Shown one piece after another: positions 12,988 to 63,329 of a DNA stretch of 64,000 nt. Source of the DNA: Hevea brasiliensis (taxonomy: Eukaryota; Streptophyta; Magnoliopsida; Malpighiales; Euphorbiaceae); contig NC_079509.1 in assembly GCF_030052815.1 (NCBI RefSeq), forward strand, positions 50,231,941 to 50,295,940, read 5' to 3'. Each line of letters begins with the position of its first letter. The stretch's first letter is position 1. Position numbers and translations under genes: made by a program. The notes beneath the pieces were generated by a model. It made no database searches. It was not told where the DNA came from and worked only from the letters and a program-made list of their open reading frames with translations.

Positions 12988-12992
12988 CTAAA

Positions 12993-25740: not shown

Positions 25741-26195
25741 TAATTCCCCATGCATGAGATTTTTATCTACTTTGGATGCCCTTAATTTTGATGTTCTTCA
25801 GTTTCTGCTCAGATTCATATTAAAAAAAATGTGGCAAATGAAATGAAATGAAATCTGCCTTGTGTTTTGCCCTATCTGGCCTTGTAATACAGTTACACTC
25901 AGTTCAAGCGAGTCTTCTTGGAGTACAAAATAACATAGCATGTGAGATTGGAATCTTGCATATTGAATTTTTTTTTTTTTTATTTCGGCAATCTTAAACC
26001 ATTCGGGGAAGAAAATTTCTAATAAAATTATTTACTGGATTCTTGCAAGAAAATCTCCAATAAAAAAATTGTTTATTTTAATCATTTACTGCTGATATTT
26101 GGCCGATTCTCTTTTTTCTTCAACTTAATGAAGTTAATTTATGTGAATTTTTTGTTATTTTGATTTTAATGTTGGTTCACTCTTGTGTTCTATTT
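25741..26195. other. Intergenic AT-rich sequence
   Basis: Contains a T run near 25968-25981. No coding or repeat structure was recognised. Confidence 0.4.
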
Positions 26196-26200: not shown

Positions 26201-28326
26201 TGTTGTGTTTTTACAGCAAAGGCAAAAATATTGACTGAAAAGTCTACTTTTTCATTAATCAAAAGATGCTTAAATACAAATTCAACTTAACTGAAATTGG
26301 AACAAAATAGCTACTGATTCAAGAAAATGTCCACTACTAACAGAAAAATAAGAAACAAGAAGCAACTAACAGAATGCCTAAAACTGTGCTCTCTAATAGC
26401 TAATTCAGGTATGCACTTCCCCATGCAATGTAGGCTAGAGGAATAGGTCTTTTATGGGTGTCGAATCCACCAGAAATTAAATTAACTGAAATTACCAGTA
26501 ATTAAATATTTTTTACAGCAAGTGGTAAATCCAGGTCAAACCCTAGAGATTGAATTATCAATTTTCGTGCACTTGTGTGTAATGAAAAACGAAAGAAACA
26601 AAGATTGGGGGGGGGGGGGGGGGGTTTTGTAACACAAAATCAGAAAAAATCAGAAATTCAAGAACTAAATATGAAAATCTCAATTTAAACAAACTTCAGT
26701 CAAGGTAATTCGCATTCCAATGCATTGATTTAATCATAGACAAAAGAAAAACAATTATCTCTTATTGAATACTTAACGTAGATTTACCAAATAGCAAGGT
26801 AAACCCTTGACTTCCCTATACTCATCAATTCGAGCTTAGCAGTCTTATTGACTCTAATTATTAACTGAGTTGGTATTAAGCAATCCTCATAAAATTAATA
26901 ACTGTTTTAAGAAAAGGAAGTAGTTAAGCTGAACAATAATTTATGAAGCATAAATCATTTAATCCATCCTATTGTTTCCTTAGGTTATTATCGAAAACTT
27001 GGATCATAATCAATAAAACCTAATTGCTACTCATGTTCAATCTTACACAACAATTACGGATTATGAAGATGAACTAGCAATTGATCAAATCAAACAATCA
27101 ACTAATAGGCCTTTTTAGCAAATCATTCAACAGATAAAAAATAATTAAATCAGAAAACAATAGATATTCAAAAAGACATAAATTAAATTAAGAACCTGAT
27201 CTCACAAATCAAGCAAAAGAACTTGAATCCCTTGAACTGAATTAAAAACTTAGCCACTCATGTTCATTCCTTACAGAAAAATAAAATAAAGAAATCGAAA
27301 GAAGAATTCTAAAAGATGAATGGAGAATGAAAGCCTTCAAATGGAGAACGAAGGTCTGAATTGGGATGCTCTTAGCTGCTGCCCAAAGACGTATTTATAC
27401 TAAAAAAACCTAATCCCAAAGATAGGAACCAAACCAAACTAGGAAAGGTTTTGAAATTCAAGATGTAGATTTTCAGCCTGCATTCACGTTTCTGGAATCA
27501 AGGCAGATTTTCAGCAACTTTCTTTCCGAATCTGCCTCTGCCCTCTTCAGGAAAGTTGTAGCCCTATTTCTTAGCTTTCCAACGGATACTCATGGACCCA
27601 AAACTGAGGTCTACAGCCCAAGTTATGGCTCAAAAACTGGGACTGGTTCAGTCAGACGGTCCAGCCCATTGTGACGAATTCATTGCCGTTTTTAACAATT
27701 AAAATGGCTTCATCTCATGTCCAGCCCTTCATAGAAGTTGTAGAGGTGGCTCTTAAGGTTCAATTGGATTGGCCTTGCTTCATTTGGACGTCTAAAACTC
27801 TAGATACAAAATAAATACTGAAACTGGTCGTGACCCATCGAGTCTGGGCTTTTGCAATAGATTCATAGCTCATTTTGTCAACCTTGGAGACTGATTTGGA
27901 CTATGATCCCTCTTTATCATTTGAAGTGCTCTATCTTAGCTTTTCAATGGATTAAACAATAATCAATTTGGAGACCCACAACTTTAGAAACACCTGAAAA
28001 ATACAGCAAAGGTCAAACACTGAAAATTTATCCATTTAACATAATTATTCCACAACTATCTAAAAATATGTCTAGATGATAAATATATTATAACCAACTG
28101 AATTAAACATAAAAAAAACACACTAAAAATACTAAATGTGATGGGAGTAAAATTAATAAATTATGCACTTATCAGTCTTATTCACAAATTCACCATCAAC
28201 TAACTTCCTTCTCACATCCTGAGAGTTGCAGCCTTTATTCCATATCAGCTTCCATCTTAGCACTCCAAATCAGCACGTTAAGATCATGTCAGCAACCAGC
28301 CTGCAGTTCCTGAGTCATCTACAACA
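26201..28326 (-). repeat. Copia A 3' LTR, split by a solo LTR
   Basis: The LTR proper is 26201-26451 plus 28180-28326, about 398 bp, matching 38456-38867. The break is at GTCTT, duplicated on both sides of the insertion. Confidence 0.88.
26452..28174 (-). mobile_element. Solo LTR, 1723 bp (family S), in the copia A 3' LTR
   Basis: On the minus strand it begins TGATAAGTGCATAATTT at 28174 and ends with GGATTCGACACCCAT. A perfect GTCTT duplication (26447-26451 and 28175-28179) flanks it. The last dinucleotide has mutated (TT on the plus strand instead of TG). It is the inverted counterpart of 36145-37867, roughly 90 percent similar by eye and of the same length. It contains an 18-G run near 26608-26625. 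There is no coding sequence. The LTR family is probably Ty3/gypsy, but I cannot fix the clade. Confidence 0.82.
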
Positions 28327-36144: not shown

Positions 36145-37867
36145 TGATAAGTACATAATTTATTAATTTTACTCCCATCACATTTAGTGTTTCTAGTGTG
36201 TTTTTATGCATAATTCAGTTGATTAAAGTATATTTATCATTTAGGCATATTTTTAGATAGTTGTTGGAATAATTGTGTTAAATAGAGAAATTTTTAGCAT
36301 TTGACCTTTGCTATATTTTTCAGGTGTTTCTAAAGTTGTGGGTCTCCAAATTGAGTGCTGTTTAATCCATTGAAAAGCTAAGATAAAGCACTTCAAATGA
36401 TAAAGAGGGACCAAAGCCCAAATCAGTCTCCAAGGTTGACAAAATGAGCTATGGATCTATTGCAAAAGCCCAGACTTGATGTGTCACGACCAGTTTCAGT
36501 ATTTATTTTGTATCTGGAGTTTCAGATGTCTAAATGAAGCAAGCCTAAGCCCAATTGAACCTTAAGAGCCACCTCTACAACTTCTATGAAGGGCTAGAAG
36601 CAAGATAAGGCTATTTTAATTGTAAAAAATGGCAATGAAGTTATCACTATGGGCTGGACCGTCTGTTTGAACCAGTCCTGATTTTTAGGCCATAACTTGA
36701 GCTATAGATCTCGAATTTAGGCAAATGAGTATCCGTTAGAAAGCTAAGAAATAGGGCTATAACTTTCCTGAAGAGGGCAGAGACAGATTCGAAAAGGAAG
36801 TCGCTGAAAATCGGCCTTGATTTTAGAGATGCGAATGTAGGCTAAAAATCTGTCTTTTGAATTTCAAAACTTTTCCTAGTTTGATTCCTATCTTTGGGAT
36901 TAGGTTTTTTTATTATAAATGCGTCTTTGGGCTGCAGTTAAAACAAACCATTCAATAGCCTCTCGATCTCAAAAACACATTCATTCTCCATTTTTTCTTT
37001 TTAGATTTCTTCTTTATTTTTCTTTATTTTTCTGTAAGCCATGAATATGAGTGGCTAAGTTTTTAATTCAGTTCAAGAGATTCAAGTTCTTTTGCATGAT
37101 TTGTGAGACCAGGTTCTTAATTTAATTTATGTCTTTTTAAATATCTATTGTTTTCTAATTTCATTGTCTTTGATCTATTGAATGATTTGCTAAAAAGGCC
37201 TATTAGTTAATTGTTTGATTTGATCAATTGCTAGTTCATCTTCATAATCCGTAATTGTTGTGTAAGACTGAACATGAGTAACAACTAGGTTTCATTGCTT
37301 GTGATCCAAGTTTTTGATAATAACCTAAGGAAATAATATGGTGAATTAAATAATTTATGCTTCATAAATTGTTGTTCAGCTTAACTACTTCCTATTCTTA
37401 AAGCAGTTATTAATTTGATGAGGATTGCTTAATACCAATTCAGTTAATAATTAGAGTCAACAAAAGTGCTGGGCTCGAATTGATGAGTGTAGGGAAGTCA
37501 GGGGTTTACCTCGTTGTTTGGTAAATCTACGTTAAGTATTCAATAAAAGAAAATTGTATTTATTTTGTCTATGATCAAATCAATGCATTGGAATGCGAAT
37601 TATCTTGGACTGAAGTTTGTTTAATTCGAGAGTTTCTTATTTAATTTTAGATTTTAATTTTAGATTTTTTATTTCTTCTTTGGATTGCGAATTAACCTCC
37701 CCTCCCCCCCCCCTCCCCAACCTTTGTTTCTTTTTCCATTACACAAGTGCATGAAATTTAATAATTCAGTCTCTAGGGTTCGACCTGGATTTACCACTTA
37801 CTGCAGAAAATATTTCATAATTGGTGATTTCAGTTAATTTAATTTATGGTGGATTCGACACCCATCA
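36145..37867 (+). mobile_element. Solo LTR, 1723 bp (family S), in copia A gag
   Basis: It starts TGATAAGTACATAATTT and ends GGATTCGACACCCATCA, in plus orientation, so inverted relative to the copy at 26452-28174. Flanking TTTCT and CTTCT form a target duplication with one mismatch. A TATA-like TATTATAAAT at 36911-36920 fits an LTR promoter. A pyrimidine tract of C runs at about 37697-37720 corresponds to the G run of the other copy. It cuts gag between VQK and ILVTLLERF. Confidence 0.82.
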
Positions 37868-38353
37868 CTTCTGCACAATTCTGCTATCAGAAAGTTTAGT
37901 TCCAAGTAGCCTTACCTTATTTACAATGCTTAGCAACTTTTCTGAGTATTCTTTAATTGTTTCAGAATCCTTCATGTGCAACATTTCGAATTCCCTCACC
38001 AAGTTTAGAACCTTCATGCCTCTGATTCTCTCATCTCCTTGGTATTTTTCCTTGAGAAAATCCCAAATTGCCTTGGCAGATCCAAGAGTCATTATTCTTG
38101 AGAAAACTGTTGGAGACACAGCAGCAAAAAGGCAGGCCTTGGCCTTAGACTTTTGAGTCTTCTTCTCCTTGCGATTTTTGATCTGAGCCAAAGTAGGATT
38201 GCTAGGTAGAGGGGGAATTTTGTAGTCCTCCTCCACTACCTCCCAGACATCACACTCATCCAGGTAAGCTTCCATCTTGACAGCCCAAACTTGATAATTT
38301 TCTCCATCAAAAACTGGTGGAGCTAATGTTAAAAAAGAGTTCTCACCTTCCAT
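37868..38353 (-). pseudogene. Copia A gag, N-terminal part
   Basis: Starts with ATG at 38351-38353 (MEGENSFLTL), about 90 bases inside the PBS. It reads as the copia capsid (UBN2-type), with FDGENYQVWAVKMEAYL, a basic KNRKEKK patch, AKAIWDFLKEKY and RIRGMKVLNLVREFE. This part is open to the solo LTR insertion at 37867 and continues at 36144. Confidence 0.88.
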
Positions 38354-38454: not shown

Positions 38455-38455
38455 T

Positions 38456-38867
38456 TGTTGTGTTTTTATAGCAAAGGCCAAACCATTGACTGAAAAGTCT
38501 ACTTTTTCATTAATCAAAAGATGCTTAAATACAAATTCAACTTAACTAAAATTGCAACAAAATGGCTACTGATTCAAGAACATGTCCACCACTAATAGAA
38601 AAATAGGAAACAAGAAGCAACTAACAAAATACAAAAACAAAATGCCTAAAACTGCGCTCTGTAACAACTAATTCTGGTATGCACTTCCCCATGCAATGTA
38701 GGCTAGAGGAATAGGTCTTATTTCACAAATTCACCATCAAGTAACTTCCTTCTCATGTCCTGAGAGTTGCAGCCTTCATTCCATATCAGCTTCCATCTCA
38801 ACACTCCAAATCAGCACATTAAGATCATGTCAGCAACCAGCCTGCAGTTCCTGAGTCATCTGCAATA
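38456..38867 (-). repeat. Copia A 5' LTR
   Basis: 412 bp, from TGTTGTGTTTTTATAGC to ATCTGCAATA on the plus strand. It matches 26201-26451 plus 28180-28326. Its outer end, CAATA, has decayed from CAACA. GGTTT follows at 38868-38872. Confidence 0.88.
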
Positions 38868-41800
38868 GGTTTCTTCTTTGGTTATTGATTTATTTTCTGC
38901 ATTTCTTGTACACTTTATTATTATCAATAAGCCGTGTGGAAAAATCTGAACCCGGACTTTTAGACTTTATCATTATTATGGTCTTTAACCCTACAGAAAA
39001 GGTAGAAGACTGAAAAATTCTTAGTTCCACTAAGTGTGTAAATTATTTCACATACTTCATTAATTAGAAATAAAGAAATTATATTTTATAGTGAGATTTA
39101 TTATATTTTATTTTAAAATTTATTATTATTTTAATAATAATTAATTATTCATTAAATAGATATATACACCTTGATATAAGTAAGAAATTTTTAAAAGACT
39201 TCTAAAATTGTATTTTTGCAAGTTAAGGTCAAATTTATTACATCACTTGTAGACTTTATTATTATCAACAAGCCGCATGGAAAAATCTGAACCCGGACTT
39301 TTAGACTTTATTATTATTATGGCCTTGAACCTTGCGGGGAAGGCAGAAGATTGAAAATTTCTTAGTTTCACTAAGTGTGTAAATTATTTTACATACTTAA
39401 TTAATTAGAAAATAAGAAATTATATTTTATAGTGAGATTTATTATATTTCATTGTAAAATTTATTATTATTTTAATAATAATTAATTATTCATTAAATAG
39501 ATATATACAATGTGATATAAGTAAGAAATTTTTAAAAGACTTCTAACATCGTCTTTTAGCAAATCAAGGTCAAATTTTTTACATGACTTATAGACTTTAT
39601 TATTATCAACAAGCCGTATGGAAAAATCTGAACCCGGACTTTTAGACTTTATTATTATAATGGCCTTGAACCCTGCGAGGAAGGTAGAAGACTAAAAAAT
39701 TCTTAGTTCCACTAAGTGTGTAAACTATTTTATATACTTAATTAATCAGAAATTAAGAAATTATATTTATGGTGAGATTTATTATATTTTGATGTAAAAT
39801 TATTATTATGTTAATAATAATTAATTATTCATTAAATAGATTTAAACACCTTGATATAAGTAAGAAATTTTTAAAAGACTTCTAAAATCGTCTTTTAGCA
39901 AATTAAGGTCAAATTTTTTGTATTAATTGTAGATTTTATTATTGTCAACAAGCTATATAGAAAAATCTGAACCCGGACTTTTAGACTTTATTATTATTAT
40001 GGCCTTGAACCCTGCGGGAAAGCCAGAAGACTGAAAAATTCTTAGTTCCACTAAGTGTGTAAAATATTTGACATACTTAATTAACTAGAAATTAAGAAAT
40101 AATATTTTATAGTGAGATTTATTATATTTTATTGCAAAATTTATTATTATTTAATAATTAATTATTCACTAAATAGATATATACACCTTGATATAAGTAA
40201 GAAATTTTTAAAAGACTTCCAAAATCATCTTTTAGCAAATTAAGGTCAAATTTTTTACATGACTTGTAGATTTTATTATTATCAATAAGCCGTATGGAAA
40301 AATCTGAACCCAGACTTTTAGACTTTATTATTATTATGGCCTTGAACCCTGCGGAGAAGATAGAAGACTGAAAAATTTTTACTTCCACTAAGTGTGTAAA
40401 TTATTTTATATACTTAATTAATTAGAAATTAAGAAATTATATTTTATAGTGAGATTTATTATATTTTGTTATAAAATTTATTATTATTTTAATAATAATT
40501 AATTATTCATTAAATAGATATATACACCTTGATATAAGTAAGAAATTTTTAAAAGACTTCTAAAATTGTAAGTTTGCAAGTTAAGGTCAAATTTATTACA
40601 TCACTTGTAGACTTTATTATTATCAACAAGCCGCATGGAAAAATCTGAACCCGGACGTTTAGACTTTACTATTATTATGGCCTTGAACCTTGCGAGGAAG
40701 GCAAAAGATTGAAAATTTCTTAGTTTCGCTAAGTGTGTAAATTATTTTACATACATAATTAATCAGAAATTAAGAAATTATATTTTATAGTGAGATTTAT
40801 TATATTTTATTGTAAAATTTATTATTATTTAAATAATAATTAATTATTCATTAAATAGATATATACACCGTGATATAAGTAAGAAATTTTTAAAAGACTT
40901 CTAAAATCGTCTTTTAGCAAATTAAGGTCAAATTTTTTACATGACTTATAGACTTTATTATTATCAACAAGCCGTATGGAAAAATCTGAACCGGGACTTT
41001 TATTATTATAATGGCCTTGAACCTTGCGGGGAAGGCAGAAGACTGAAAAATTCTTAGTTCCACTAAGTGTGTAAACTATTTTATATACTTAATTAATAAG
41101 AAATTATATTTTATAGTGAGATTTATTATATTTTGTTTTAAAATTTATTATTATTTTAATAATAATTAATTATTCATTAAACAGATATATACACCTTGAT
41201 ATAAGTAAGAAATTTTTAAAAGACTTCTAAAATCGTCTTTTAGCAAATTAAGGTCAAATTTTTTGTATTAATTAGAGATTTTATTATTGTCAACAAGCCA
41301 TATGGAAAAATTTGAACCCGGACTTTTAGACTTTATTATTATTATGGCCTTGAACCCTGTGGAGAAGGCAGAAGACTGAAAAATTCTTAGTTCCACTAAG
41401 TGTGTAAATTATTTTATATACTTAATTAATTAGAAATTAAGAAATTATATTTTATAGCGAGATTTATTATATTTTATTTTAAAATTTATTATTATTTTAA
41501 TAATAATTAATTATTTACTAAATAGATATATACACCTTGATATAAGTAAGAAATTTTTAAAAGACTTCTAAAATCATCTTTTAGCAAATTAAGGTCAAAT
41601 TTTTTACATGACTTGCAGACTTTATGATTATCAACAAGCCGATGGAAAAATCTAAACCCGAACTTTTAGACTTTATTATTATTATGGCCTTGAACCCTAC
41701 GGAGAAGGCAGAAGACTGAAAAATTCTTAGTTCCACTAAGTGTGTAAATTATTTTATATACTTAATTAATTAGAAATTAAGAAATTATATTTTATAGTGA

Positions 41801-43553
41801 GATTTATTATATTTTATTGTAAAATTTATTATTATTTTAATAATAATTAATTATTCATTAAATAGATATATACACCTTGATATAAGTAAGAAATTTTTAA
41901 AAGACTTCTAAAATTGTATTTTTGCAAGTTAAGGTCAAATTTATTACATGACTTGTAGACTTTATTATTATCAACAAGCCGCATGGAAAAATCTGAACCC
42001 GGACTTTTAGACTTTATTATTATTATGGCCTTGAACCTTGCAGGGAAGACAGAAGATTGAAAATTTCTTAGTTTCACTAAGTGTGCAAATTATTTTACAT
42101 ACTTAATTAATTAGAAATTAAGAAATTATTTTTTATAGTGAGATTTATTATATTTTATTGTCAAAATTTATTATTATTTAAATAATAATTAATTATTGAT
42201 TAAATAGATATATACACCGTGATATAAGTAAGAAATTTTTAAAAGACTTCTAAAATCGTCTTTTAGCAAATTAAGGTCAAATTTTTTACATGACTGGTGG
42301 ACTTTATTATTATCAACAAGCCATATGGAAAAATCTAAACCCGGACTTTTAGACTTTATTATTACTATGGCCTTGAACCCTGCGGAGAAGGCAGAAGACT
42401 GAAAAATTCTTAGTTCCACTAAGTGTGTAAATTATTTTATATACTTAATTAATTAGAAATTAAGAAATTATATTTTATAGTGAGATTTGTTATATTTAGT
42501 TGAAAATTTTATTATTATTTTAATAATAATTAATTATTCATTAAACTGATATATACATCTTGATATAAGTAAGCAATTTTTAAAAGACTTCTAAAATAGT
42601 CTTTTAGCAAATTAAAGTCAAATTTTTTGCATGACTTGTAGACATTATTATTATCAACAAGCCGTATGGAAAAATATGAACCCGGACTTTTAGACTTTAT
42701 TATTATTATGGCCTTGAACTCTGCGGGGAAGGTAGAAGACTGAAAAATTCTTAGTTTCACTAAGTGTGTAAATTATTTTATATACTTAATTAATTAGAAA
42801 TTACGAAATTAGATTTTGCAGTGAGATTTATTATATTTTATTGAAAAATTTTTTATTATTTTAATAACAATTAATTATTCATTAAATAGATATATACACC
42901 TTGATATAAGTAAGAAATTTTTAAAAGACTTCTAAAGTCGTCTTTTAGCAAATTAAGTTGAAATTTTTTGCATGACTTGTAGACTTTATTATTATCAACA
43001 AGCCGTATAGAAAAATCTGAACACGAACTTTTAGACTTTATTATTATTATGGTCCTAAACCCTGCCAGTAAGGCAGAAGACTGAAAAATTCTTAGTTCCA
43101 CTAAGTGTGTAATTTATTTTATATACTTAATTAATTAGAAATTAAGAAATAATATTTTATAGTGAGATTCATTATATTTTATTGTAAAATTTATTATTAT
43201 TTAAATAATAATTAATTATTCATTAAATAGATATATATACCTTGATATAAGTAAGAAATTTTTAAAAGACTTCTAAAATCGTCTTTTAGCAAATTAAGGT
43301 CAAATTTTTTACATGGCTTATAGACTTTATTATTATCAACAAGCCGTATGGAGAAATCTGAACCCGGACTTTTAGACTTCATTATTATTATGGCCTTGAA
43401 CCTTGCGGGGAAGGTAGAAGATTGAAAATTTCCTTAGTTTCACTAAATGTGTGAATTATTTTACATACTTAATTAAATAGAAATTAAGAAATTATATTTT
43501 ATAGTGAGATTTATTATATTTTATTGTAAAATTTATTATTATTTAGATAATAA

Positions 43554-45941
43554 TTAATTATTCATTAAATAGATATATACACCGTGATATAAGTAAGAAA
43601 TTTTTAGAAGGCTTCTAAAATCGTCTTTTAGCAAATAAAGGTCAAATTTTTTACATGACTTATAGACTTTATTATTTTCAACAAGCCGTATGGAAAAATC
43701 TGAACCCGGACTTTTAGACTTTATTATTATTATGGCCTTGAATCCTATGGAGAAGGTAGAAGACTGAAAAATTCTTAGTTCCACTAAGTGTGTAAATTAT
43801 TTTGTATAATTAATTAAATAGAAATTAAGAAATTATATTTTATAGTGAGATTTATTATATTTTGTTGAAAAATTAATTATTATTTTAATAATAATTAATT
43901 ATTCATTAAACAGATAAATACACCTTGATATAAGTAAGAAATTTTTAAAAGACTTCTATAATAGTCTTTTAGCAAATTAAGGTCAAATTTTTTGCATGAC
44001 TTGTAGACATTATTATTATCAACAAGCCGTATGGAAAAATATGAACCCAGACTTTTAGACTTCATTATTATTATGGCCTTGAACTCTGCGGGGAAGGCAG
44101 AAGACTGAAAAATTCTTAGTTCCACTAAGTGTGTAAATTATTTTATATACTCAATTAATTTCAAATTAAGAAATTATATTTTATAGTGAGATTTATTATA
44201 TTTTATCGTAAAATTTATTATTATTTTAATAGAAATTAATTATTCATTAAATATATATGCACACCTTGATATAAGTAAGAAAATTTTAAAAGACTTCTAA
44301 AATCATCTTTTAGCAAATTAAAGTCAAATTTTTTACATGACTAGTAAACTTTATTATTATCAACAAGCCATATGGAAAAAACTGAACCCGGACTTTTAGA
44401 CTTTATTGTTATTATGGCCTTAAACCCTGCGGAGAAGGCAGAAGACTGAAAAATTCTTAGTTCCACTAAGTGTGTAAATTATTTTATATACTTAATTAAT
44501 TAGAAATTAAGAAATAATATTTTATAGTGAGATTTATTATATTTTTATTGTAAAATTTATTATTATTTTAATAATAATTAATTATTCATTATATAGATAT
44601 ATACACCTTGATATAAGTAAGAAATTTTTAAAAGACTTCTAAAATCATCTTTTAGCAAATTAAGGTCAAATTTTTTACATGACTTGTAGACTTTATTATT
44701 ATCAACAAGCCGTATGGAAAAATCTGAACTCGGACTTTTAGACTTTATTATTATTATGGCCTTGAATCCTGCGGAGAAGGCAGAACACTGAAAAATTCCT
44801 AGTTCCACTAAGTGTGTAAATTATTTTGTGCACTTAATTAATTAGAAATTAAGAAATTATATTTTATAGTGAGATTTATTATATTTTGTTGTAAAATTTA
44901 TTATTTTTTAATAATAATTAATTATTCATTAAATAGATATATACACCTTGATATAAGTAAGAAATTTTTAAAAGACTTCTAAAATCATCTTTTAGCAAAT
45001 TAAGGTCAAATTTTTTGAATGACTTATAAACTTTATTATTATCAACAAGCCATATGGAAAAATCTGAACCCAGACTTTTAGACTTTATTATTATTATGGC
45101 CTTGAACCCTGCGGGGAAGGCAGAAGACTGAAAAATTCTTAGTTCCACTAAGTGTATAAATTATTTTGTACACTTAATTAATTAAAAATTAAGAAATTAT
45201 ATTTTATAGTGAGATTTATTATATTTTGTTGTAAAATTTATTATTTTTTTAATAATAATTAATTATTCATTAATTAGATATATACACCTTGATATACGTA
45301 AGAAATTTTTAAAAGACTTCTAAAGTCGTCTTTTAGCAAATTAAGGTGAAATTTTTTGCATGACTTGTTGACTTTATTATTATCAACAAGCCGTATGGAA
45401 AAATCTGAACCCGAACTTTTAGACTTTATTATTATTATGGTCTTAAACCCTGCCAGTAAGGCAGAAGACTGAAAAATTCTTAGTTCCACTAAGTGTGTAA
45501 ATTATTTTATATACTTAATTAATTAGAAATTAAGAAATAATATTTTATAGTGAGATTCATTATATTTTATTGTAAAATTTATTATTATTTAAATAATAAT
45601 TAATTATTCATTAAATAGATATATACACCTTGATATAAGTATAAAATTTTTAAAAGACTTCTAAAATCGTCTTTTAGCAAATTAAGGTCAAATTTTTTAC
45701 ATGGCTTATACACTTTATTATTATCAACAAGCCGTATGGAAAAATCTGAAGCCTGACTTTTAGACTTTATTATTATTATGGCCTTGAACCTTGCGGGGAA
45801 GGTAGAAGGTTGAAAATTTCCTTAGTTTCACTAAGTGTGTGAATTATTTTACATACTTAATTAATTAGAAATTAAGAAATTATATTTTATAGTGAGATTT
45901 ATTATATTTTGTTGTAAAATTCATTATTATTTAGATAATAA
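43554..45941. repeat. Higher-order repeat unit 1 (monomers A-G, 2388 bp)
   Basis: Seven monomer types in order, each with private marks. A has ACACCGTGATATAAG and GCAAATAAAGG; B has AAAATATGAACCC and GTAGACATTATT; C has AAGAAAATTTTAAAAG and TTAAAGTC; D has ATTCATTATATAG and GAACTCGG; E has CTTATAAACTTTATT; F has CTAAAGTCGTC and CCCGAACTTTT; G has GAAAATTTCCTTAGTTTC. Confidence 0.85.
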
Positions 45942-46963
45942 TTAATTATTCATTAAATAGATATATACACCGTGATATAAGTAAGAAATTTTTAAAAGAC
46001 TTCTAAAATCGTCTTTTAGCAAATAAAGGTCAAATTTTTTACATGACTTATAGACTTTATTATTTTCAACAAGCTGTTTGGAAAAATCTGAACTCGGACT
46101 TTTTGACTTTATTATTATTATGGCCTTGAATCCTGTGGAGAAGGTAGAAGACTGAAAAATTCTTAGTTCCACTAAGTGTGTAAATTATTTTATATACTTA
46201 ATTAAATAGAAATTAAGAAATTATATTTTATAGTGAGATTTATTATATTTTGTTGAAAAATTAATTATTATTTTAATAATAATTAATTATTCATTAAACA
46301 GATATATAGACCTTGATATAAGTAAGAAATTTTTAAAAGACTTCTAAAGTCGTTTTTTAGCAAATTAAGGTGAAATTTTTTGCTTGACTTGTAGACTTTA
46401 TTATTATCAAAAAGCCGTATGGAAAAATCTGAATCCGAACTTTTAGACTTTATTATTATTATGGTCTTAAACCCTGCCGGTAAGGCAGAAGACTGAAAAA
46501 TTCTTAGTTCCACTAAGTGTGTAAATTATTTTATATACTTAATTAATTAGAAATTAAGAAATAATATTTTATAGTGAGATTTATTATATTTTATTGTAAA
46601 ATTTATTATTATTTAAATAATAATTAATTATTCATTAAATAGATATATACACCTTGATATAAATAAGAAATTTTTAAAAGACTTCTAAAATTGTATTTTT
46701 CCAAGTTAAGGTGAAATTTATTACATTGCTTGTAGACTTTATTATTATCAACAAGCCGCATGGAAAAATCTGAACCCGGACTTTTAGACTTTATTATCAT
46801 TATGGCCTTGAACCTTGCGGGGAAGGCAGAAGATTGAAAATCCTTAGTTTCACTAAGTGTGTGAATTATTTTACATACTTAATTAATTAGAAATTAAGAA
46901 ATTATATTTTATAGTGAGATTTATTATATTTTAATGTTAAATTTATTATTATTTAGATAATAA
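45942..46963. repeat. Shortened higher-order repeat (monomers A-F-G, 1022 bp)
   Basis: Type A at 45942 is followed directly by type F at 46283 and type G at 46624. Types B to E are missing, consistent with unequal exchange between monomers. Confidence 0.8.
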
Positions 46964-49351
46964 TTAATTATTCATTAAATAGATATATACACCGTGATAT
47001 AAGTAAGAAATTTTTAAAAGACTTCTAAAATCGTCTTTTAGCAAATAAAGGTCAAATTTTTTACATGACTTATAGGCTTTATTATTTTCAACAAGCCGTA
47101 TGGAAAAATTTGAACTCGGACTTTTAGACTTTATTGTTGTTATGGCCTTGAATCCTGTGGAGAAGGTAGAAGACTGAAAAATTCTTAGTTCCACTAAGTG
47201 TGTAAATTATTTTATATACTTAATTAAATAGAAATTAAGAAATTATATTTTATAGTGAGATTTTTTATATTTTGTTGAAAAATTAATTATTATTTTAATA
47301 ATAATTAATTATTCATTAAACAGATATATATACCTTGATATAAGTAAGAAATTTTTAAAAGACTTCTAAAATAGTCTTTTAGCAAATTAAGGTCAAATTT
47401 TTTGCACGACTTGTAGACATTATTATTATCAACAAGCCCTATGGAAAAATATGAACCCGGACTTTTAAACTTTATTATTATTATGGCCTTGATCTCTGCG
47501 AGGAAGGCAGAAGACTGAAAAATTCTTAGTTCCACTAAGTGTGTAAATTATTTTATATACTCAATTAATTTCAAATTAAGAAATTATATTTTATAGTGAG
47601 ATTTATTATATTTTGTTGTAAAATTTATTATTATTTTAATAGTAATTGATTATTCATTAAATAGATATACACACCTTGATATAAGTAAGAAAATTTTAAA
47701 AGACTTCTAAAATCATCTTTTAGCAAATTAAAGTCAAATTTTTTACATGACTTGTAAACTTTATTATTATCAAAAAGCCATATGGAAAAATCTGAACCCG
47801 GACTTTTAGACTTTATTGTTATTACGGCCATAAACCCTGCGGGGAAGGCAGAAGACTGAAAAATTCTTAGTTCCACTAAGTGTGTAAATTATTTTATATA
47901 CTTAATTAATTAGAAATTAAGAAATTATATTTTATAGTGAGATTTATTATATTTTTATCGTAAAATTTATTATTATTTTAATAATAATTAATTATTCATT
48001 ATATGGATATATACACCTTGATATAAGTAAGAAATTTTTAAAAGACTTCTAAAATCATCTTTTAGCAATTTAAGGTCAAATATTTTACATGACTTGTAGA
48101 CTTTATTATTATCAACAAGCCGTGTGGAAAAATCTGAACTCGGACTTTTAGACTTTATTATTATTATGGCCTTGAACCCTGCGGAGAAGGCAGAAGACTG
48201 AAAAATTCTTAGTTCCACTAAGTGTGTAAATTATTTTGTACACTTAATTAATTAGAAATTAAGAAATTATATTTTATAATGAGATTTATTATATTTTGTT
48301 GTAAAATTTATTATTTTTTAATAATAATTAATTATTCATTAAATTGATATATACACCTTGATATAAGTAAGAAATTTTTAAAAGACTTCTAAAATCATCT
48401 TTTAGCAAATTAAGGTCAAATTTTTTGCATGACTTATAAACTTTATTATTATGAACAAGCCATATGGAAAAATCTGAACCCGGAATTTTAGACTTTATTA
48501 TTATTATGGCCTTGAACCCTGCGGGGAAGGGAGAAGACTGAAAAATTCTTAGTACCACTAAATGTGTAAATTATTTTGTACACTTAATTAATTGAAAATT
48601 AAGAAATTATATTTTATAGTGAGATTTATTATATTTTGTTGTAAAATTTATTATTTTTTTAATAATAATTAATTATTCATTAAATAGATATATACACCTT
48701 GATATAAGTAAGAAATTTTTAAAAGACTTCTAAAGTCGTCTTTTAGCAAATTAAGGTGAAAGTTTTTGCATGACTTGTAGACTTATTATTATCAACAAGC
48801 CGTATAGAAAAATCTGAACCCGAACTTTTAGACTTTATTATTATTATGGTCTTAAACCCTGCCGGTAAGTCAGAAGACTAAAAAATTCTTAGTTCCACTA
48901 AGTGTGTAAATTATTTTATATACTTAATTAATTAGAAATTAAGAAATAATATTTTTATAGTGAGATTTATTATATTTTATTGTAAAATTTATTATTATTT
49001 AAATAATAATTAATTATTCATTAAATAGATATATACACCTTGATATAAATAAGAAATTTTTAAAAGACTTCTAAAATTGTATTTCTCCAAGTTAAGGTGA
49101 AATTTATTACATGACTTGTAGACTTTATTATTATCAACAAGCCGCATGGAAAAATCTGAACCCGGACTTTTAGACTTTATTATTATTATGGCCTTGAACC
49201 TTGCGGGGAAGGCAGAAGATTGAAAATTTCCTTAGTTTCACTAAGTGTGTGAATTATTTTACATACTTAATTAATTAGAAATTAAGAAATTATATTTTAT
49301 AGTGAGATTTATTATATTTTAATGTTAAATTTATTATTATTTAGATAATAA
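46964..49351. repeat. Higher-order repeat unit 2 (monomers A-G, 2388 bp)
   Basis: Same seven types in the same order as 43554-45941, starting 3410 bp (ten monomers) later. The G copy here has GTATTTCTCCAAG, shared with the G copy at 46624, so it is a subtype. Confidence 0.85.
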
Positions 49352-51397
49352 TTAATTATTCATTAAATAGATATATACACCGTGATATAAGTAAGAAATT
49401 TTTAAAAGACTTCTAAAATCGTCTTTTAGCAAATAAAGGTCAAATTTTTTACATGACTTATAGGCTTTATTATTTTCAACAAGCCGTATGGAAAAATTTG
49501 AACCCGGACTTTTAGACTTTATTGTTATTATGTCCTTGAATCCTGTGGAGAAGGTAGAAGACTGAAAAATTCTTAGTTCCACTAAGTGTGTAAATTATTT
49601 TATATACTTAATTAAATAGAAATTAAGAAATTATATTTTATAGTGAGATTTTTTATATTTTGTTGAAAAATTAATTATTATTTTAATAATAATTAATTAT
49701 TCATTAAACAGATATATATACCTTGATATAAGTAAGAAATTTTTAAAAGACTTCTAAAATAGTCTTTTAGCAAATTAAGGTCAAATTTTTTGCACGACTT
49801 GTAGACATTATTATTATCAACAAGCCATATGGAAAAATATGAACCCGGACTTTTAGACTTTATTATTATTATGGCCTTGATCTCTGCGGGGAAGGCAGAA
49901 GACTGAAAAATTCTTAGTTCCACTAAGTGTGTAAATTATTTTATATACTCAATTAATTTCAAATTAAGAAATTATATTTTATAGTGAGATTTATTATATT
50001 TTGTTGTAAAATTTATTATTATTTTAATATTAATTAATTATTCATTAAATAGATATACACACCTTGATATAAGTAAGAAAATTTTAAAAGACTTCTAAAA
50101 TCATCTTTTAGCAAATTAAAGTCAAATTTTTTACATGACTTGTAAACTTTATTATTATCAACAAGCCATATGGAAAAATTTGAACCCGGACTTTTAGACT
50201 TTATTGTTATTATGGCCTTAAACCCTGGGGGGAAGGCAGAAGACTGAAAAATTCTTAGTTCCGCTAAGTGTGTAAATTATTTTATATACTTAATTAATTA
50301 GAAATTAAGAAATAATATTTTATAGTGAGATTTATTATATTTTTATCGTAAAATTTATTATTATTTTAATAATAATTAATTATTCATTATATAGATATAT
50401 ACACCTTGATATAAGTAAGAAATTTTTAAAAGACTTCTAAAATCATCTTTTAGCAATTTAAGGTCAAATTTTTTACATGACTTGTAGACTTTATTATTAT
50501 CAACAAGCCGTATGGAAAAATCTGAACTCGGACTTTTAGACTTTATTATTATTATGGCCTTGAACCCTGCGGAGAAGGCAGAAGACTGAAAAATTCTTAG
50601 TTCCACTAAGTGTGTAAATTATTTTATATACTTAATTAATTAGAAATTAAGAAATTATATTTTATAGTGAGATTTATTATATTTTGTTGTAAAATTTATT
50701 ATTTTTTAATAATAATTAATTATTCATTAAGTAGATATATACACCTTGATATAAGTAAGAAATTTTTAAAAGACTTCTAAAATCATCTTTTAGCAAATTA
50801 AGGTCAAATTTTTTGCATGACTTATAAACTTTATTATTATGAAAAAGCCATATGGAAAAATCTGAACCTGGAATTTTAGACTTTATTATTATTATGGCCT
50901 TGAACCCTGCGGGGAAGGTAGAAGACTGAAAAATTCTTAGTTCCACTAAGTGTGTAAATTATTTTTCACACTTAATTAATTAAAAATTAAGAAATTATAT
51001 TTTATAGTGAGATTTATTATATTTTGTTGTAAAATTTATTATTTTTATAATAATAATTAATTATTCATTAAATAGATATATACACCTTGATATAAGTAAG
51101 AAATTTTTAAAAGACTTCTAAAGTCGTCTTTTAGCAAATTAAGGTGAAAGTTTTTGCATGACTTGTAGACTTTATTATTATCAACAAGCCGTATAGAAAA
51201 ATCTGAACCCGAACTTTTAGACTTTATTATTATTATGGTCTTAAACCCTGCTGGTAGGTCAGAAGACTGAAAAATTCTTAGTTCCACTAAGTGTGTAAAT
51301 TATTTTATATACTTAATTAATTAGAAATTAAGAAATTATATTTTATAGTGAGATTTATTATATTTTATTGTAAAATTTATTATTATTTTAATAATAA
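49352..51397. repeat. Higher-order repeat unit 3 (monomers A-F)
   Basis: Types A to F, each exactly 2388 or 2387 bp after its counterpart in unit 2. Sampled monomer D differs at only about three of 160 bases between 47988 and 50376. Type G is replaced by a consensus-like monomer at 51398. Confidence 0.83.
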
Positions 51398-52415
51398 TTA
51401 ATTATTCATTAAATAGATATATACACCTTGATATAAGTAAGAAATTTTTAAAAGACTTCTAAAATCGTCTTTTAGCAAATTAAGGTCAAATTTTTTACAT
51501 GACTTATAGACTTTATTATTATCAACAAGCCGTATGGAAAAATCTGAACCTGGACTTTTAGACTTTATTATTATAATGGCCTTGAACCCTGCGGGGAAGG
51601 CAGAAAATTGATAAATTCTTAGTTCCACTAAGTATTAAGTTATTTTATATACTTAATTAATCAGAAATTAAGAAATTATATTTTATAGTGAGAATCGGAA
51701 ATTAAGAAATTATATTTTAAAGTGAGATTTATTATATTTTGTTGTAAAATTTATTGTTATTTTAATAATAATTAATTATTCATTAAATAGATATATGCAC
51801 CTTGATATAAGTAAGAAATTTTTAAAAGACTTATAAAATCGTCTTTTAGCAAATTAAGGTCAAATTTTTTGCATGGCTTATAGACTTTATTATTATCAAC
51901 AAGCCGTATGGAAAAATCTGTACTTGGATTTTTAAATTTTATTTTTATTATGGCCTTGAACCCTGTGAGGAAGGCAGAAAATTGAAAATTTCTTAATTCC
52001 ACTTTGTGTGTAAATTATTTTATATACTTAATTAATTAGAAATTAAGAAATTATATTTTATTATGAAATTTTTTATATTTTGTTGTAAAATTTATTATTA
52101 TTTTAATAATAATTAATTATTCATTAAATAGATATACACACCTTAATATAAGTCAGAAATTTTTAAAAGACTTCTAAAATCGTCTCTTGGGAAATTAAGG
52201 TCAAATTTTTTGCAAGACTTGTAGACTTTATTAAAAGACTTTTAAAATCGTCTTTTAGCAAATTATGTTCAAATTTTTTGCATGACTTATAGACTTTTTT
52301 ATTATCAACAAGCCGTATGGAAAAATCTAAATTTAGACTTTTAGATTTTATTATTATTATGATTTGCGGACTTCATTATTATCAACAACCCGTGTGGAAA
52401 AATTTGAACCCAGTC

Positions 52416-52754
52416 TATTTGGTATAAGTGGATAGAGTTGTTGTTGAAAAAAATATTTTGTTAATTATATTAATTAAAAATAATTTAAATTTAGATTTAA
52501 TAAATTTTAATTATAAAAATATTAAAATAATAAAATAATTTTTTAAATTATTCTTTTATTAACATTTAAAATTATGTTTTTTTCTTAAAAAGTAGTTTTA
52601 ATTCTTCAATTTCAATATTAAACAGGTACAAACTATCTATATTTTAAAATAAGTGCATTATGTTTTTATTTTTTTGATCATCAATAGTGTGTGTACTGCG
52701 ATATGTATTACTTTTTTATCATATTTATTTTTCTTTCAAAGGATAAAAAAAAAT
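52416..52754. other. AT-rich gap between satellite and Sirevirus
   Basis: The first bases contain TGGTATAAGTGG, which resembles a pol III A box, followed by ATAGAGTTGTTGTTG and an A run. No B box follows in place. The rest is low-complexity AT-rich sequence. Confidence 0.35.
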
Positions 52755-54170
52755 TGTTGTCCCAAAAAAAGTGATCAAGAGGGGGGTGAATTGGACACTT
52801 TAGGCAATTTTTCAGTCTTTGCTCAAGACTTAATGAAAAATTGTGGATTTGCACTTCTATGTATGTGTATAACTCTGTTTCTAGGATGTAATTTAAGTAA
52901 TCAATCAAGTTATTCACAAATAACAGATCATACACAAAATAATTACTTAATACCAAGTATATTTTCTCACATGAAAATCAGAGTTTGCAAGTTTAATTGT
53001 TCAATCTCAGTGTTAACTCAATAAAACAAGTTCTCAACACATTCAATATATATTCAGAGAATCAAAGTGCAAAAAATTAAAGATTTAAGGGAAGAAGATA
53101 ATCAAACACAATGTTTATAGTGGTTCGGCTCTCTTAACCTTCATCCACTCTTCCCAAAGTCCCACTTTGAGAGTCACTCCACTATTTGATCTTTTCAACA
53201 GGTAAGATTCAAAGCCTTTACAATCTCAGCAAGCTTCCCAGGTGCTTGAGAACCTTTACAACGTCTTTCCTTCCCACAAAAGACCACAAGCTTCATAAGG
53301 TGCTTGAAAACCTTCCACAAGTGTGTCCTCACACTTACACAACCTTAAATAGGTTTTGGAGTAGATAAAATCACTCTCAATAACTCTCAGATACAGAATT
53401 TAATGCTAAAAAATTGAGAGAGAAGATTTGCCACTCAAGCTCAAGAGTATTTGAACGAAAGCTTTAAAAATACCATAATAAATTCACAATGAATAAGAGT
53501 ACTTTCATTAGTTAGAATTGTAGTAAATGATGCCTTTTATAGGTGCTTTTCATTGCCAAAAACGTCTGCTGGAGAGTGTGTCTAATGACTCTTTAATTTT
53601 CAAAAAACTAGCCGTTATTACTTAGAAAGTCGTGCAGCAGAGTTGAGTCAGGTTAAATCATAAAAATAATTAACTAAATTTTTCACCGGTTAACTAGTTT
53701 TGTAAGACAGAGAATTTTAGACATCAAAACTAGTTAACTAATTTTCGCAACGAGTTAACTAATTTCGCTACTGTCTGACTTAAATTTTGAGTTTTTGAAG
53801 GAAGGTTGTAAAAATTACTTTGACTATTCAAAAACCTTAGAAATGATATAAAAACACTTTATAAACTCTGGAATCTAAAATCAAAATTGATTTTAGGTCT
53901 TAAATGGCATAAATTCTCCACTCTTGTACAATGGTCCTAAGAACTTAATTTCTATCCTATTTCTTCATGGACTTTGATTCGTCTTGTGTTATACAAGATG
54001 ATAATCTCTTTTTATATTAGCCATGTCATTAGAATAGTCCTTCCATCAATGTCTTTGCATATCATGACCTATAAAATAACTTCAAATACTTATGCACAAA
54101 GGGTTAATATATATTTCATTAAGTTTTGTTATCATCAAAATCAAGCTCATTATAGCTTACAGGGCCTACA
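52755..54170 (-). repeat. Sirevirus 3' LTR, complete
   Basis: 1416 bp, TGTTGTCCC to GGGCCTACA on the plus strand. Its first about 1030 bp match 62296-63329 closely. It contains TAGTTAACTA palindromes near 53731 and related copies nearby. Confidence 0.88.
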
Positions 54171-57273: not shown

Positions 57274-60200
57274 TCAATAGCTTCCCTCATGCCAAGTTCC
57301 CTTCTAATCCTACAAAAGTTTTTCTTATTTAGTGGTTTTGTAAAAATATCTGCAAGTTGTTATTCTGTAGGAATAAACTCTAACTCAATGTCACCGTTTT
57401 GAACATGATTTCTAATAAAGAGATGTCTAATTTCTAATAAAGTGATGTCTAATTTCTATGTGCTTTGATCTAGAGTGTTGGACTAGATTTTTAGTTAGGT
57501 TGATGGCACTAGTATTATCACACCTTATAGGAACATTATCAACCTTTATACCAAAATCTTCTAATTGTTGCTTCATCTATAGAATTTGAGCAACACAACT
57601 TCCTATGATAATGTATTACCTTCAGCGATGAAAGAGCTACAGAAGTTTGTTTCTTACTATGCCAAGACACTAAGGCATGACCTAGGAATTGGCAAGTACC
57701 CGAAGTACTCTTTCTATCCAATCTACTTTCAGCAAAGTCAGAATCACTATATCCAACTAGATCAAATGTGTCGCATTTAGGATACCGTAAACCAATTGAG
57801 TGTGTGCCAATGAGGTATTTGAAAATCCTTTTAACAGCAAGTAAATGAGATTCCTTAGGACATGATTGAAACCGAGCACACATACACACACTAAAATGAA
57901 TGTCAGGTCTAGATGCAGTTAAATATAAAAGTGACCCAATCATGCCTCTAAATAGCTTTTGATCAACATCTTTACCTTTTTCATCCTTTTCCAACTTGAT
58001 GGTGGAGCTCATAGGAGTTCCAATACTCTTCAAATCATCCATCTTGAATTTATTTAGCATATCTTTGATGTACTTGGATTGATTAATAAAGATGCCACCA
58101 TTGAGTTGCTTAATTTGTAGTCCAAGGAAAAAGGTAAGTTCACCCATCATGCTCATCTCAAATTCATTTTGCATCATCTTAGAGAAGCTTTTGCATAGAG
58201 AAGCATCAGTAGCACCAAAAATAATGTCATCAATATAAATTTGAAAGAAAAGCATATCATGTTTGTGTGTTTTTGTGAAGAGTGTGTTGTCTGCTTTTCC
58301 TCTTTAAAAACCATTATCTAAAAGAAACTTACTAAGCCTCTCATACCAAGCTCTAGGGGCTTGCTTCAATCCATATAAGGCCTTAGTGAGTTTATAAACA
58401 TGATTAGGAAATTCATAATTTTCAAAACCTGGTGGTTGTTCAACATAAACTTATTCATCAATATAACCATTCAAGAATGCACTCTTAACATCCATTTGAT
58501 ATGGCATAAAATTTTTATAACATGCAAATGCACACAACATTCTAATAGTTTCAATTCTAGCAACTGGAGCAAAAGTCTCATCAAAATCAATACATTCCTC
58601 TTGATTATATCCTTGAGCTACTAATGTAGCCTTATTTCTAATGACTTGCCCTTTATCATCCATTTTGTTCCTAAAAACCCACTTGGTACCAATGATAAAA
58701 TGATTTCTAGGCCTAGGAACAAGTTTCCATACTTTATTTCTCTCAAATTGATTGAGTTCTTCTTGCATAGCAAGAATCCAACTCTCATCACTTTGAGCTT
58801 CATTATAAGACTTTGGTTCAAGTTGAGAAACAAATGCAATGTTACCAAAGTATTTTCGAAGTTGAGCTCTTGTCATCATCTTTTTTGAAGGGCTATCAAT
58901 TATGTCCTCCTTTGGATGATCTCTATGATATCTCCATTCTTGAGGTAGGTCATCATGATGTGGTTCATCAATTTGGAGTTCTTCAATATTGGGCAATACT
59001 TCTTGATCACCTTCTTGATCTTTCTCATTAGCATTTTCATTAACAACATCATTCCCAATTGCACTTTAGGGCTCAATAGATTGACTTTGTTGCTTGTGAG
59101 TCTTATCCCTTTTTCTTCCAAAAATTTTACCTAGTTCATCTTCATCAGAAACAATCTTTCTTTCCAAGAAGTTGTTAGTTTCATCAAATACAACATGAAT
59201 GGTTTCCTCAACTAACAAAGTTCTCCTATTAAAGACTCTATAAGCTTTGCTATGTATTAAATATCCTAGAAAAATACCTTCATCTGATTTTACATCAAAT
59301 TTTTTGAGGTTATCATTCTTGTTGTTCAAAATATAACACTTACAACCAAATGCACGAAAGTAAGAAATGTTAGGCTTCCTCCCTTTCCATAATTCATAAG
59401 AGGTTTTCTTTAAGATTGGCCTAATCATTGCTCTATTCAAGATATAGCAAGCAGTGTTTATGGCTTCTGCCCAAAAGTATTTTGGAAGACTGTGTTCACT
59501 AAGCATTGTTCTTGCCATTTCTTGTAAAGTTCTATTTTTCCTCTCTACAACTCCATTTTGTTGTGGGGTTCTAGGAGCTGAAAAGTTATGAAAAATGCCA
59601 TTGTTTGAACAAAATTCATCAAAAGATTGGTTTTCAAACTCTCTCCCATGATCACTTCTAATGGAGGCAATGAGTAAGCCTTTTTTACTTTGTACTTTCT
59701 TACAAAAAGATATAAATACACTAAAAGTTTCATCCTTATGTGCAAAAAAATATGTCCATGTATACCTAGTGTAATCATCTACTATGACCAAAGTATATGC
59801 TTTACCACCAAGACTTATAGGTGTAATAGGACCAAACAAATCAAGATGTAATAACTCAAGAGGTCTAGATGTTGAAACAACATTTTTTGATTTGAAAGAA
59901 ACTTTGGTTTGTTTCCCAAGAGAACAAGGCTTGCAAACATGATCTTTTTCAAAGTTAATTTTTGGCAAACCTTTAACAAGGTCATATCTTAAAAGGTTTG
60001 AAATCACATGCATACTAGCATGACCAAGTCTTCTATGCCACAACCAACTATCTTCTTTAAGAGATACAAGACATCTTTCATTTCCATTTTCAATAACATT
60101 CAAATCAAGCAAATATACATTTTCACTTCTAGGTGCAATGAATAATGTATGATCATTATGCAAACTTCTAATATCACAATGTGTAGAATTAAAAATAACT

Positions 60201-62280: not shown

Positions 62281-62292
62281 GCTCTGATACCA
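62281..62292 (-). other. Primer binding site of the Sirevirus
   Basis: The minus strand reads TGGTATCAGAGC, the initiator tRNA-Met complement, three bases inside the LTR boundary at 62296. Confidence 0.92.
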
Positions 62293-62295
62293 ATT

Positions 62296-63329
62296 TGTTG
62301 TCCCAAAGAAAGTGATCAAGAGGGGGGTGAATTGGACACTTTAGGCAATTTTTTAGTCCTTGCTCAAGACTTAATGAAAAATTGTGGCTTTGCACTTCTA
62401 TGTATGTGTATAACTCTGTTTCTAGGCTGTAATTTAAGTAATCAATCAAGTTATGCACAAATAGCAGCTCATACACAAAATAATTACTTAATACCTAGTG
62501 TATTTTCTCACATAAAAATCAGAGTTTGCAAGTTTAATTGTTCAATCTCAGTATTAACTCAATAAAACAAGTTCTCAACACATTCAATATATAATCAGAG
62601 AATCGAAGTTCTGAAAATTAAAGAGTTAAGGGAAGAAAAGAATAAAAAACAATGTTTATAGTGGTTCGGCTCTCTTAGCCTACATCCACTCTTCCCAAAG
62701 TCCCACTTTGAGAGTCACTCAACTATTTGATCTTTTCAATAGGCAAGATTCAAAGCCTTTACAATCTCAGCAAACTTGCCAGGTGCTTGAGAACCTTTAC
62801 AAAGTTTTTGCTTGCCACAAAATACCACAAGCTTCACAAGGTGCTTGAAAACCTCCCAAAAGCTTCACAAGGTGGTTGAAAACCACAAGTGTGTCCTCAC
62901 ACTTACACAACCTTAAATAGGTTTTGGAGTAGATGAAATCACTCTCAATAACTCTTAGATACAGAATTTAATGCTAAAAGATTGAGAGAGAAGATTTGCC
63001 ACTCAAGCTCAAGAGTATTTGAATGAAAGTTTTAAAAATACCACAATAAATTCACAATGAATAAGAGCACTTTCATTAGTTAGAATTGTAGTAAATGATG
63101 CCTTTTATAGGTGCTTTTCATTGCCAAAAATGTCTGCTGGAGAGTGTGTCTAACAGCTCTTTAATTTTCAAAAAACTAGCCGTTATTACTTAGAAAGTCG
63201 TGCAGCAGAGTTGAGTCAAGTCAGATCATAAAAATAGTTAACTAAAATTTTCACCGATTAACTAGTTTTGTAAGACAGAGAATTTTAGACATCAAAACTA
63301 GTTAACTAATTTTTGCAACGAGTTAACTA
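62296..63329 (-). repeat. Sirevirus 5' LTR, truncated in U3
   Basis: 1034 bp matching the first part of 52755-54170. Similarity stops abruptly after CGAGTTAACTA at 63329; the remaining about 390 bp of U3, including the outer TGTAGGCCC end, are absent. Confidence 0.87.

What the first reader, a model, noticed from the sequence alone, without database searches (positions are those of the whole stretch)
43554..51397. Seven-monomer higher-order repeat in a 341-bp plant satellite
The sequence shows monomer types A to G recurring in fixed order with a period of 2388 bp (46964 to 49352 and all later counterparts), and of 3410 bp from the first unit because a shortened A-F-G unit sits between. Types are set apart by private mutations, and counterparts in different units are far closer to each other than neighbours within a unit. 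Higher-order repeats are the classic sign of recent block-wise amplification in centromeric satellites and are less often documented in plants. The A-F-G unit and an A-B-F-G stretch at 42189-43553 look like deletion products of unequal exchange.
Basis: seen in the sequence. Interest (0 to 1): 0.78.

Follow-up and report, generated by a model that had tools for sequence, protein, structure and literature searches.

The report
Single-site plant satellite with nested repeats
A 13.5-kb stretch of plant DNA is built from about 40 copies of a 341-base unit that recur in blocks of seven; it was seen at only one place in the readable genome and half of each copy resembles an old mobile element, so it is more likely a local repeat than a centromere.

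Summary
Window 38893-52421 is one head-to-tail array of about 39 monomers of ~341 bp. From 42871 to 51397 (not 43554) monomer types recur as a seven-monomer higher-order repeat (HOR) of 2,388 bp. Units match at 96.3-98.1%; one monomer out of register gives 92.3%. Read F-first there are three complete units, an F-G-A trimer and a terminal F. Units differ by 46-87 substitutions, so assembly duplication is unlikely.

The interpretation changes. (1) The A-B-F-G block is not a clean deletion product: its A and B are sisters of the A and B clades. (2) An older four-monomer HOR (39141-41846) lies to the left. (3) "Centromeric" is not supported: a 30-nt core (up to 3 mismatches) hits 38 times in the 1.88-Gb genome, all in this array. 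The left 50 kb has no further satellite; the right 50 kb read N.

Monomer positions 214-392 are an imperfect palindrome. All 40 reported outside hits (39 of 84 candidates scored) match only this part, on 15 contigs. Likeliest origin: tandem amplification of a MITE-like element plus ~160 bp of other sequence, shaped by unequal exchange. New member of a known kind.

The parts
38893..52421 (+). whole 341-bp tandem array (13,529 bp), all copies on one strand; left edge lies next to a copia-type LTR, right edge decays through a 374-bp monomer, a 68-bp tandem duplication and truncated copies
42871..45258 (+). HOR unit H1, order F-Ga-A-B-C-D-E, 2388 bp
45259..46282 (+). shortened unit F-Ga-A (lacks B-C-D-E), 1024 bp; 2.9% substitutions from the F-G-A of H1, 4.0-4.1% from those of H2 and H3
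46283..48668 (+). HOR unit H2, order F-Gb-A-B-C-D-E, 2386 bp; 1.93% substitutions from H3
48669..51056 (+). HOR unit H3, order F-Gb-A-B-C-D-E, 2388 bp
51057..51397 (+). terminal F monomer; HOR ends here
42189..42870 (+). proto-A and proto-B monomers, sisters of (outside) the A and B clades; left limit of the homogenised block
39141..40498 (+). older four-monomer HOR, first copy (G'-p-q-D'), 1358 bp
40499..41846 (+). older four-monomer HOR, second copy, 1348 bp; 4.84% substitutions and 5 indels from the first; a third G' follows at 41847
43767..43945 (+). one example of the ~180-bp palindromic (MITE-like) segment of the monomer, consensus positions 214-392, running over the monomer border
   Evidence: coordinates carried over from the consensus, start checked
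43605..43766 (+). one example of the ~160-bp non-palindromic segment (consensus 52-213); its 30-nt core was found at no other readable place
   Evidence: coordinates carried over from the consensus, start checked

Best explanation
A local, apparently single-site satellite. A ~180-bp foldback (MITE-like) element next to ~160 bp of other DNA was duplicated in tandem. Repeated unequal crossing over or conversion between misaligned copies then made first a four-monomer and later a seven-monomer higher-order repeat. The middle of the array was homogenised; the edges escaped and diverged. No function for the plant is implied. Shown: the monomer, both HORs, their tree, edge decay, the palindrome of the consensus and its dispersed relatives, confinement of the core to this array in the readable assembly. 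Inferred: direction from element to satellite, unequal exchange as the motor, absence of function.
For: HOR. Older tetramer: supports 97, 97, 85 and 96 for its four positions, mean lag-4 identity of five pairs 94.2% against 90.4% for neighbours, 6 of 20000 shuffles as high (lag 4 was chosen after seeing the matrix). Chimeric monomer: Ga carries all 6 G-private sites, most of them 3' of column 190, yet of the 9 Ga/Gb columns from 69 to 136 Gb agrees with all three older G' copies at 7, and at 6 of those 7 Ga has the commonest letter of the other types; this is what an exchange inside a monomer would leave. Single site: 38 of 38 hits of the 30-nt core lie in the array, 5 of 5 of a 125-nt pattern. 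Palindrome: self-reverse-complement score 81 against 42.3 +/- 8.6 in dinucleotide shuffles, 0 of 300 as high; the other half scores 24 against 20.6, 62 of 300 as high. Dispersed relatives: all 40 reported hits (39 of 84 candidates were scored), none in the array, lie within query 66-246, that is monomer 212-392; 5 of the 8 loci read align over 176 or more of 181 positions.
Against: Dispersed copies are only 71-84% identical. Palindromy is weak in them: of six tested, the score was reached by 5, 8, 9, 19, 28 and 70 of 200 shuffles. I read no target-site duplication by eye in the 8 loci, so 'MITE' is a likeness and no superfamily is assigned. The segment is 13% GC, which inflates chance matches. 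Several C1 hits share the same limits and may be copies of one larger repeat. At 5 of the 13 Ga/Gb columns Gb is the odd one, against both G' and the other types (three of these with all others agreeing on one letter or nearly so), so plain drift adds to the difference. The right flank reads N, so further copies there cannot be excluded; more diverged arrays could be missed, and the search meant to find them did not complete.
Confidence: 0.7

Rival explanations
1. It is a part of this chromosome's centromeric satellite: a chromosome-specific centromeric HOR, or its edge.
For: HORs are known from centromeres (PMC4053949, passages); 341 bp is about two nucleosome lengths (recalled); the 50 kb to the right read N, so half of the surroundings is unseen.
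Against: The core occurs at no other readable place of 1.88 Gb; the array is 13.5 kb and ends inside the window on both sides; it lies 85% along a 59-Mb contig; GH9 gene sequence lies about 15 kb away, with a relative in the left flank.
Confidence: 0.08
2. It is an internal tandem repeat of an LTR retrotransposon, left as an array.
For: Copia-type elements flank the array: LTR similarity at 38455-38719 on the left (the LTR may run to about 38901, next to the array) and 52751-53761 on the right; such an origin is called frequent in PMC7004042 (title and start of abstract in a listing).
Against: The array lies outside both LTR pairs (26200-26451/38455-38719, 88.7%; 52751-53761/62292-63329, 92.1%). 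With the satellite consensus as query the best hit inside either pair is a 14-nt match at E 0.44. The core is not repeated elsewhere, as would be expected for an element family.
Confidence: 0.07
3. The dispersed 180-bp pieces descend from the satellite (scattered by circles or conversion), or the likeness is convergent AT-rich sequence.
For: 13% GC; decayed palindromes and no readable target-site duplications in the dispersed copies.
Against: All 40 reported hits stay within the same limits and none includes the other half (39 of 84 candidates scored); 5 of 8 loci read align over 176 or more of 181 positions.
Confidence: 0.2
4. The period is an assembly duplication.
For: Only three complete units; no reads could be inspected.
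Against: Units differ by 46, 79 and 87 substitutions in about 2386 bp, with 1-3 indels, and older tetramers lie beside them.
Confidence: 0.03

Closest known systems
Higher-order repeats of tandem satellites (alpha-satellite type; plant cases in PMC4053949, PMC7290377 and PMC12046899, passages seen)
   Same: several monomer types in fixed order, counterparts closer than neighbours, a shortened unit, diverged edges
   Different: three complete units only, one short array, seen at one place, no sign of a centromere
Satellites born from MITE or foldback elements (Tetris TIR-220 in Drosophila virilis, PMC4079207, abstract and outline seen; rye D1100, bivalve and Xenopus cases named in the review PMC9659126, passages seen)
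   Same: an inverted-repeat element supplies part of the tandem unit while relatives stay dispersed
   Different: the monomer is element plus ~160 bp of other sequence; apparently one locus; HORs of two sizes recorded; element superfamily not identified
Retrotransposon-derived satellites of plants (PMC7004042, listing only)
   Same: plant, TE-rich setting, array next to LTR elements
   Different: no convincing likeness of the monomer to the flanking elements (best inside either LTR pair: 14 nt, E 0.44)

Membership tests
Higher-order-repeat satellite array | multi-monomer units repeat with counterparts more alike than neighbours | tested here: met
   96.9% (27 pairs) against 91.6% (22 neighbour pairs), 0 of 5000 order shuffles, clades A-F 98-100%
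Higher-order-repeat satellite array | the block is repeated in tandem at least twice | tested here: met
   three complete 7-monomer units, H2 and H3 directly adjacent, a 3-monomer unit between H1 and H2
Centromeric satellite | family present at most centromeres as large arrays | tested here: not met
   38 of 38 hits of the 30-nt core in one 13.5-kb array; stretches reading N not seen, chromosome-specific centromeric repeats not excluded by this row
Centromeric satellite | enriched in CENH3 chromatin | not testable with these tools
   no ChIP data
MITE-derived satellite | part of the monomer matches a dispersed element with an inverted-repeat build | tested here: met
   40 of 40 reported outside hits within monomer 212-392, 15 contigs (39 of 84 candidates scored); palindrome in the consensus, 0 of 300 shuffles
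MITE (the 180-bp element itself) | target-site duplication at dispersed copies | tested here: inconclusive
   none read by eye in 8 loci; copies old
MITE (the 180-bp element itself) | terminal inverted repeats kept in dispersed copies | tested here: inconclusive
   ends like GGAAAATT and AATTTCC in some, self-complementarity reached by 5 to 70 of 200 shuffles in six tested
LTR-retrotransposon internal tandem repeat | array lies inside an element | tested here: not met
   array lies between two elements, outside both LTR pairs

The most novel reading that the evidence does not exclude
One locus preserves nearly the whole birth record of a plant satellite: a foldback element fused to a flank, amplified into 341-bp monomers, organised first as a tetramer and then as a heptamer HOR, with a chimeric monomer marking an exchange, without spreading to any other chromosome and outside a centromere. 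It would be a natural time series for models of how HORs arise.
Probability: 0.45. Interest if true: 0.45.

Novelty: new member of a known kind. Interest (0 to 1): 0.3.

Why it matters
HOR structure is often read as a mark of centromeres. Here is a small array, seen at a single and probably non-centromeric site, that carries two HORs of different age and size. If confirmed it supports the view that HORs follow from unequal exchange in any tandem array. Mechanism and origin are both known kinds, so the gain is a clean example and not a new principle.

Tried and rejected
Ancient dimer of ~170 bp: the consensus shows no half-shift likeness (best 36.4%; mean of the best in 500 shuffles 37.7%). Coding content: the longest open frame across repeated consensus units is 80 codons, on the - strand. 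Naming the species: a protein search with a copia-type integrase frame listed 120 of 7667 relatives at 43-71% identity in several plants and unnamed sources, none close enough to name it; not pursued. Target-site duplications: none read. A search for diverged relatives of the non-palindromic half and a second core pattern did not complete. A paper search with 'CEN178' terms gave 0 papers.
Full report
Setting. The window lies at C17:50231941-50295940 of a 1.877-Gb assembly of 755 contigs; C17 is 59.09 Mb. Pfam hits among ten frames tested: a reverse transcriptase frame at 3546-3977 (non-LTR type by my judgement), frames with chromodomain, Tf2-type SH3, reverse transcriptase and RNase H at 8-11 kb (Gypsy type by judgement), a copia-type gag at 37865-38353, an integrase frame at 59066-60163 and a GH9 (endoglucanase) frame at 22318-22722. 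Window 22118-24375 has an 83% relative in the left flank, about 35 kb away; whether either GH9 copy is intact was not tested. Of ten 10-kb flank stretches fetched the five on the left are readable and gave no satellite hit at E 1e-4; the five on the right read N throughout and say nothing.

The array. TRF reports period 341, 39.0 copies, 90% matches. Cut at positions from nhmmer, 38 monomers from 39141 to 52112 are 326-374 bp, mostly 341. All nhmmer hits are on the + strand. The left end lies next to what looks like the end of a copia LTR near 38901 (LTR similarity was aligned only to 38719). The right end decays: a 34-bp duplication at 51659-51727, a 68-bp one at 52163-52301, truncated copies to 52421, and a further weak 71% match over 108 bp at 52453-52556, E 5.7e-6.

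The seven-monomer HOR. Identity by lag peaks at seven. In 43554-51397, 27 counterpart pairs average 96.9% and 22 neighbour pairs 91.6%. The position-based mean of 13 pairs (97.1%) was reached by 0 of 20000 shuffles of monomer order, but that statistic was chosen after seeing the pattern; the lag-7 mean of the first 36 of 38 monomers, against the best of 19 lags in shuffled orders, was reached by 0 of 5000. Private sites fixed in one type and absent from the other types number 7 (A), 7 (B), 4 (C), 2 (D), 2 (E), 4 (F) and 6 (G). In a maximum-likelihood tree A, C, E and F have 100% support, D 99, B 98; the G monomers form a supported group (91) only together with three older left-hand monomers.

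Better limits. F and G at 42871-43553 belong to the same HOR: 97.7% and 96.2% to the F and G seven monomers on. Reading F-first gives H1 42871-45258, a short F-Ga-A unit 45259-46282, H2 46283-48668, H3 48669-51056 and a final F. H1-H2 differ by 87 substitutions in 2386 aligned, H1-H3 by 79 in 2387, H2-H3 by 46 in 2385, with 1-3 indels; H1 shifted by one monomer differs by 183 in 2385 with 6 indels. These differences make a copy error of the assembly unlikely, though no reads were available.

What the tree adds. 42189 is sister to the A clade (91) and 42530 to the B clade (98), outside both; a deletion within the finished HOR would have left them inside. The A-F-G (F-G-A) unit does fit loss of B-C-D-E: its A and F are members of their clades and the length difference is four monomers. 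To the left lies an older tetramer, 39141-40498 and 40499-41846, its four positions supported at 97 (with a third copy of the first at 41847), 97, 85 and 96. Mean lag-4 identity of five pairs is 94.2% against 90.4% for neighbours; 6 of 20000 shuffles reached it; the two copies differ by 65 of 1343 and 5 indels. Ga and Gb differ at 13 fixed columns, 9 of them from column 69 to 136; at 7 of these 9 Gb agrees with all three old G' monomers, and at 6 of the 7 Ga has the commonest letter of the other types, as if a generic stretch had been exchanged into a G monomer. Against a pure exchange: at columns 40, 78, 90, 349 and 354 Gb alone differs from both G' and the commonest letter of the others. Inference: unequal exchange or conversion made a tetramer, then a heptamer, and homogenised the middle.

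One place in the genome. A 125-nt pattern with up to 3 mismatches gave 5 hits, all here. A 30-nt core (AACAAGCCGTATGGAAAAATCTGAACCCGG) with up to 3 mismatches gave 38 hits on the + strand, all between C17:50270866 and 50283867, none elsewhere and none for the reversed control. Stretches that read N were not searched; arrays diverged by more than about 10% in this core would be missed; the tool warns that its counts are lower bounds. A search for diverged relatives of that half did not complete.

A mobile-element half. With a whole monomer as query the genome search reported 40 hits (39 of 84 candidates scored), none in the array itself, on 15 contigs, 71-84% identical; all 40 lie within query 66-246, that is monomer 212-392 across the monomer border. 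That stretch of the consensus is an imperfect palindrome: 68.6% identity to its own reverse complement over 185 columns; 0 of 300 dinucleotide shuffles score as high, while the other half scores like its shuffles, 62 of 300. Eight of the 40 loci were read: five align over 176 or more of 181 positions, some with ends near GGAAAATT and AATTTCC. Against a simple MITE label: no target-site duplication was read, and palindromy is weak in the dispersed copies (5 to 70 of 200 shuffles as high in six tested). A later query with the element alone scored 40 of 169 candidates; of 41 matches 40 lay in the array and one, on C9, was a dispersed copy over query 2-183 of 184 at 81%.

Known or new. HORs in plants and outside centromeres are in print: PMC4053949 (passages), PMC7290377 (passages), PMC12046899 (three passages on centromeric and non-centromeric arrays). 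Satellites from foldback or MITE elements are in print too: PMC4079207 (abstract and outline), PMC9659126 (passages). A search for '341 bp' with satellite, higher-order and centromere terms gave one paper, whose 341-bp repeat is from the pika. A search joining MITE, higher-order and tandem-array terms gave four papers, of which I looked into one by passages and saw no such case; of 11 papers I looked into one, and of 147 I saw 20 listed and looked into two. That this exact satellite is undescribed is likely but not shown, as the species is unknown here.

Verdict. Best described as a local satellite of probable mobile-element origin with two generations of HOR. An age could be guessed only with a recalled mutation rate, so none is given.

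Noticed in passing
window 24752-24896: A possible further, diverged copy of the foldback element between the GH9 sequence and the left copia LTR, with matching inverted ends; alignment score 89 against a maximum of 83 in 192 control windows, so marginal.
   Followed up: partly
window 22118-24375 and L012: GH9 endoglucanase-like sequence with an 83% identical relative about 35 kb to the left: a tandem gene duplication; intactness not tested.
   Followed up: partly
window 5096-8117 and 12992-16009: Blocks 98-99% identical, 7.9 kb apart, on both sides of Gypsy-type frames: they look like the long LTRs of a recent insertion.
   Followed up: no
window 18144-18795 and 19178-19828: Local direct duplication, 82-86% identical, 1.03 kb apart.
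   Followed up: no
window 52751-53761 and 62292-63329: LTR pair, 92.1% identical, of a probably copia-type element just right of the array.
   Followed up: partly
window 26607-26624: A run of 18 G near the left copia LTR copy, perhaps an assembly or sequencing artefact.
   Followed up: no
window 52453-52575: Weak AT-rich matches to the palindromic part of the satellite on both strands just beyond the array's right end (E 5.7e-6 at best), perhaps a decayed remnant.
   Followed up: no
left flank L009-L013 joined, 25452-26112: A separate short tandem repeat, period 338, two copies; no hit to the satellite at E 1e-4.
   Followed up: no
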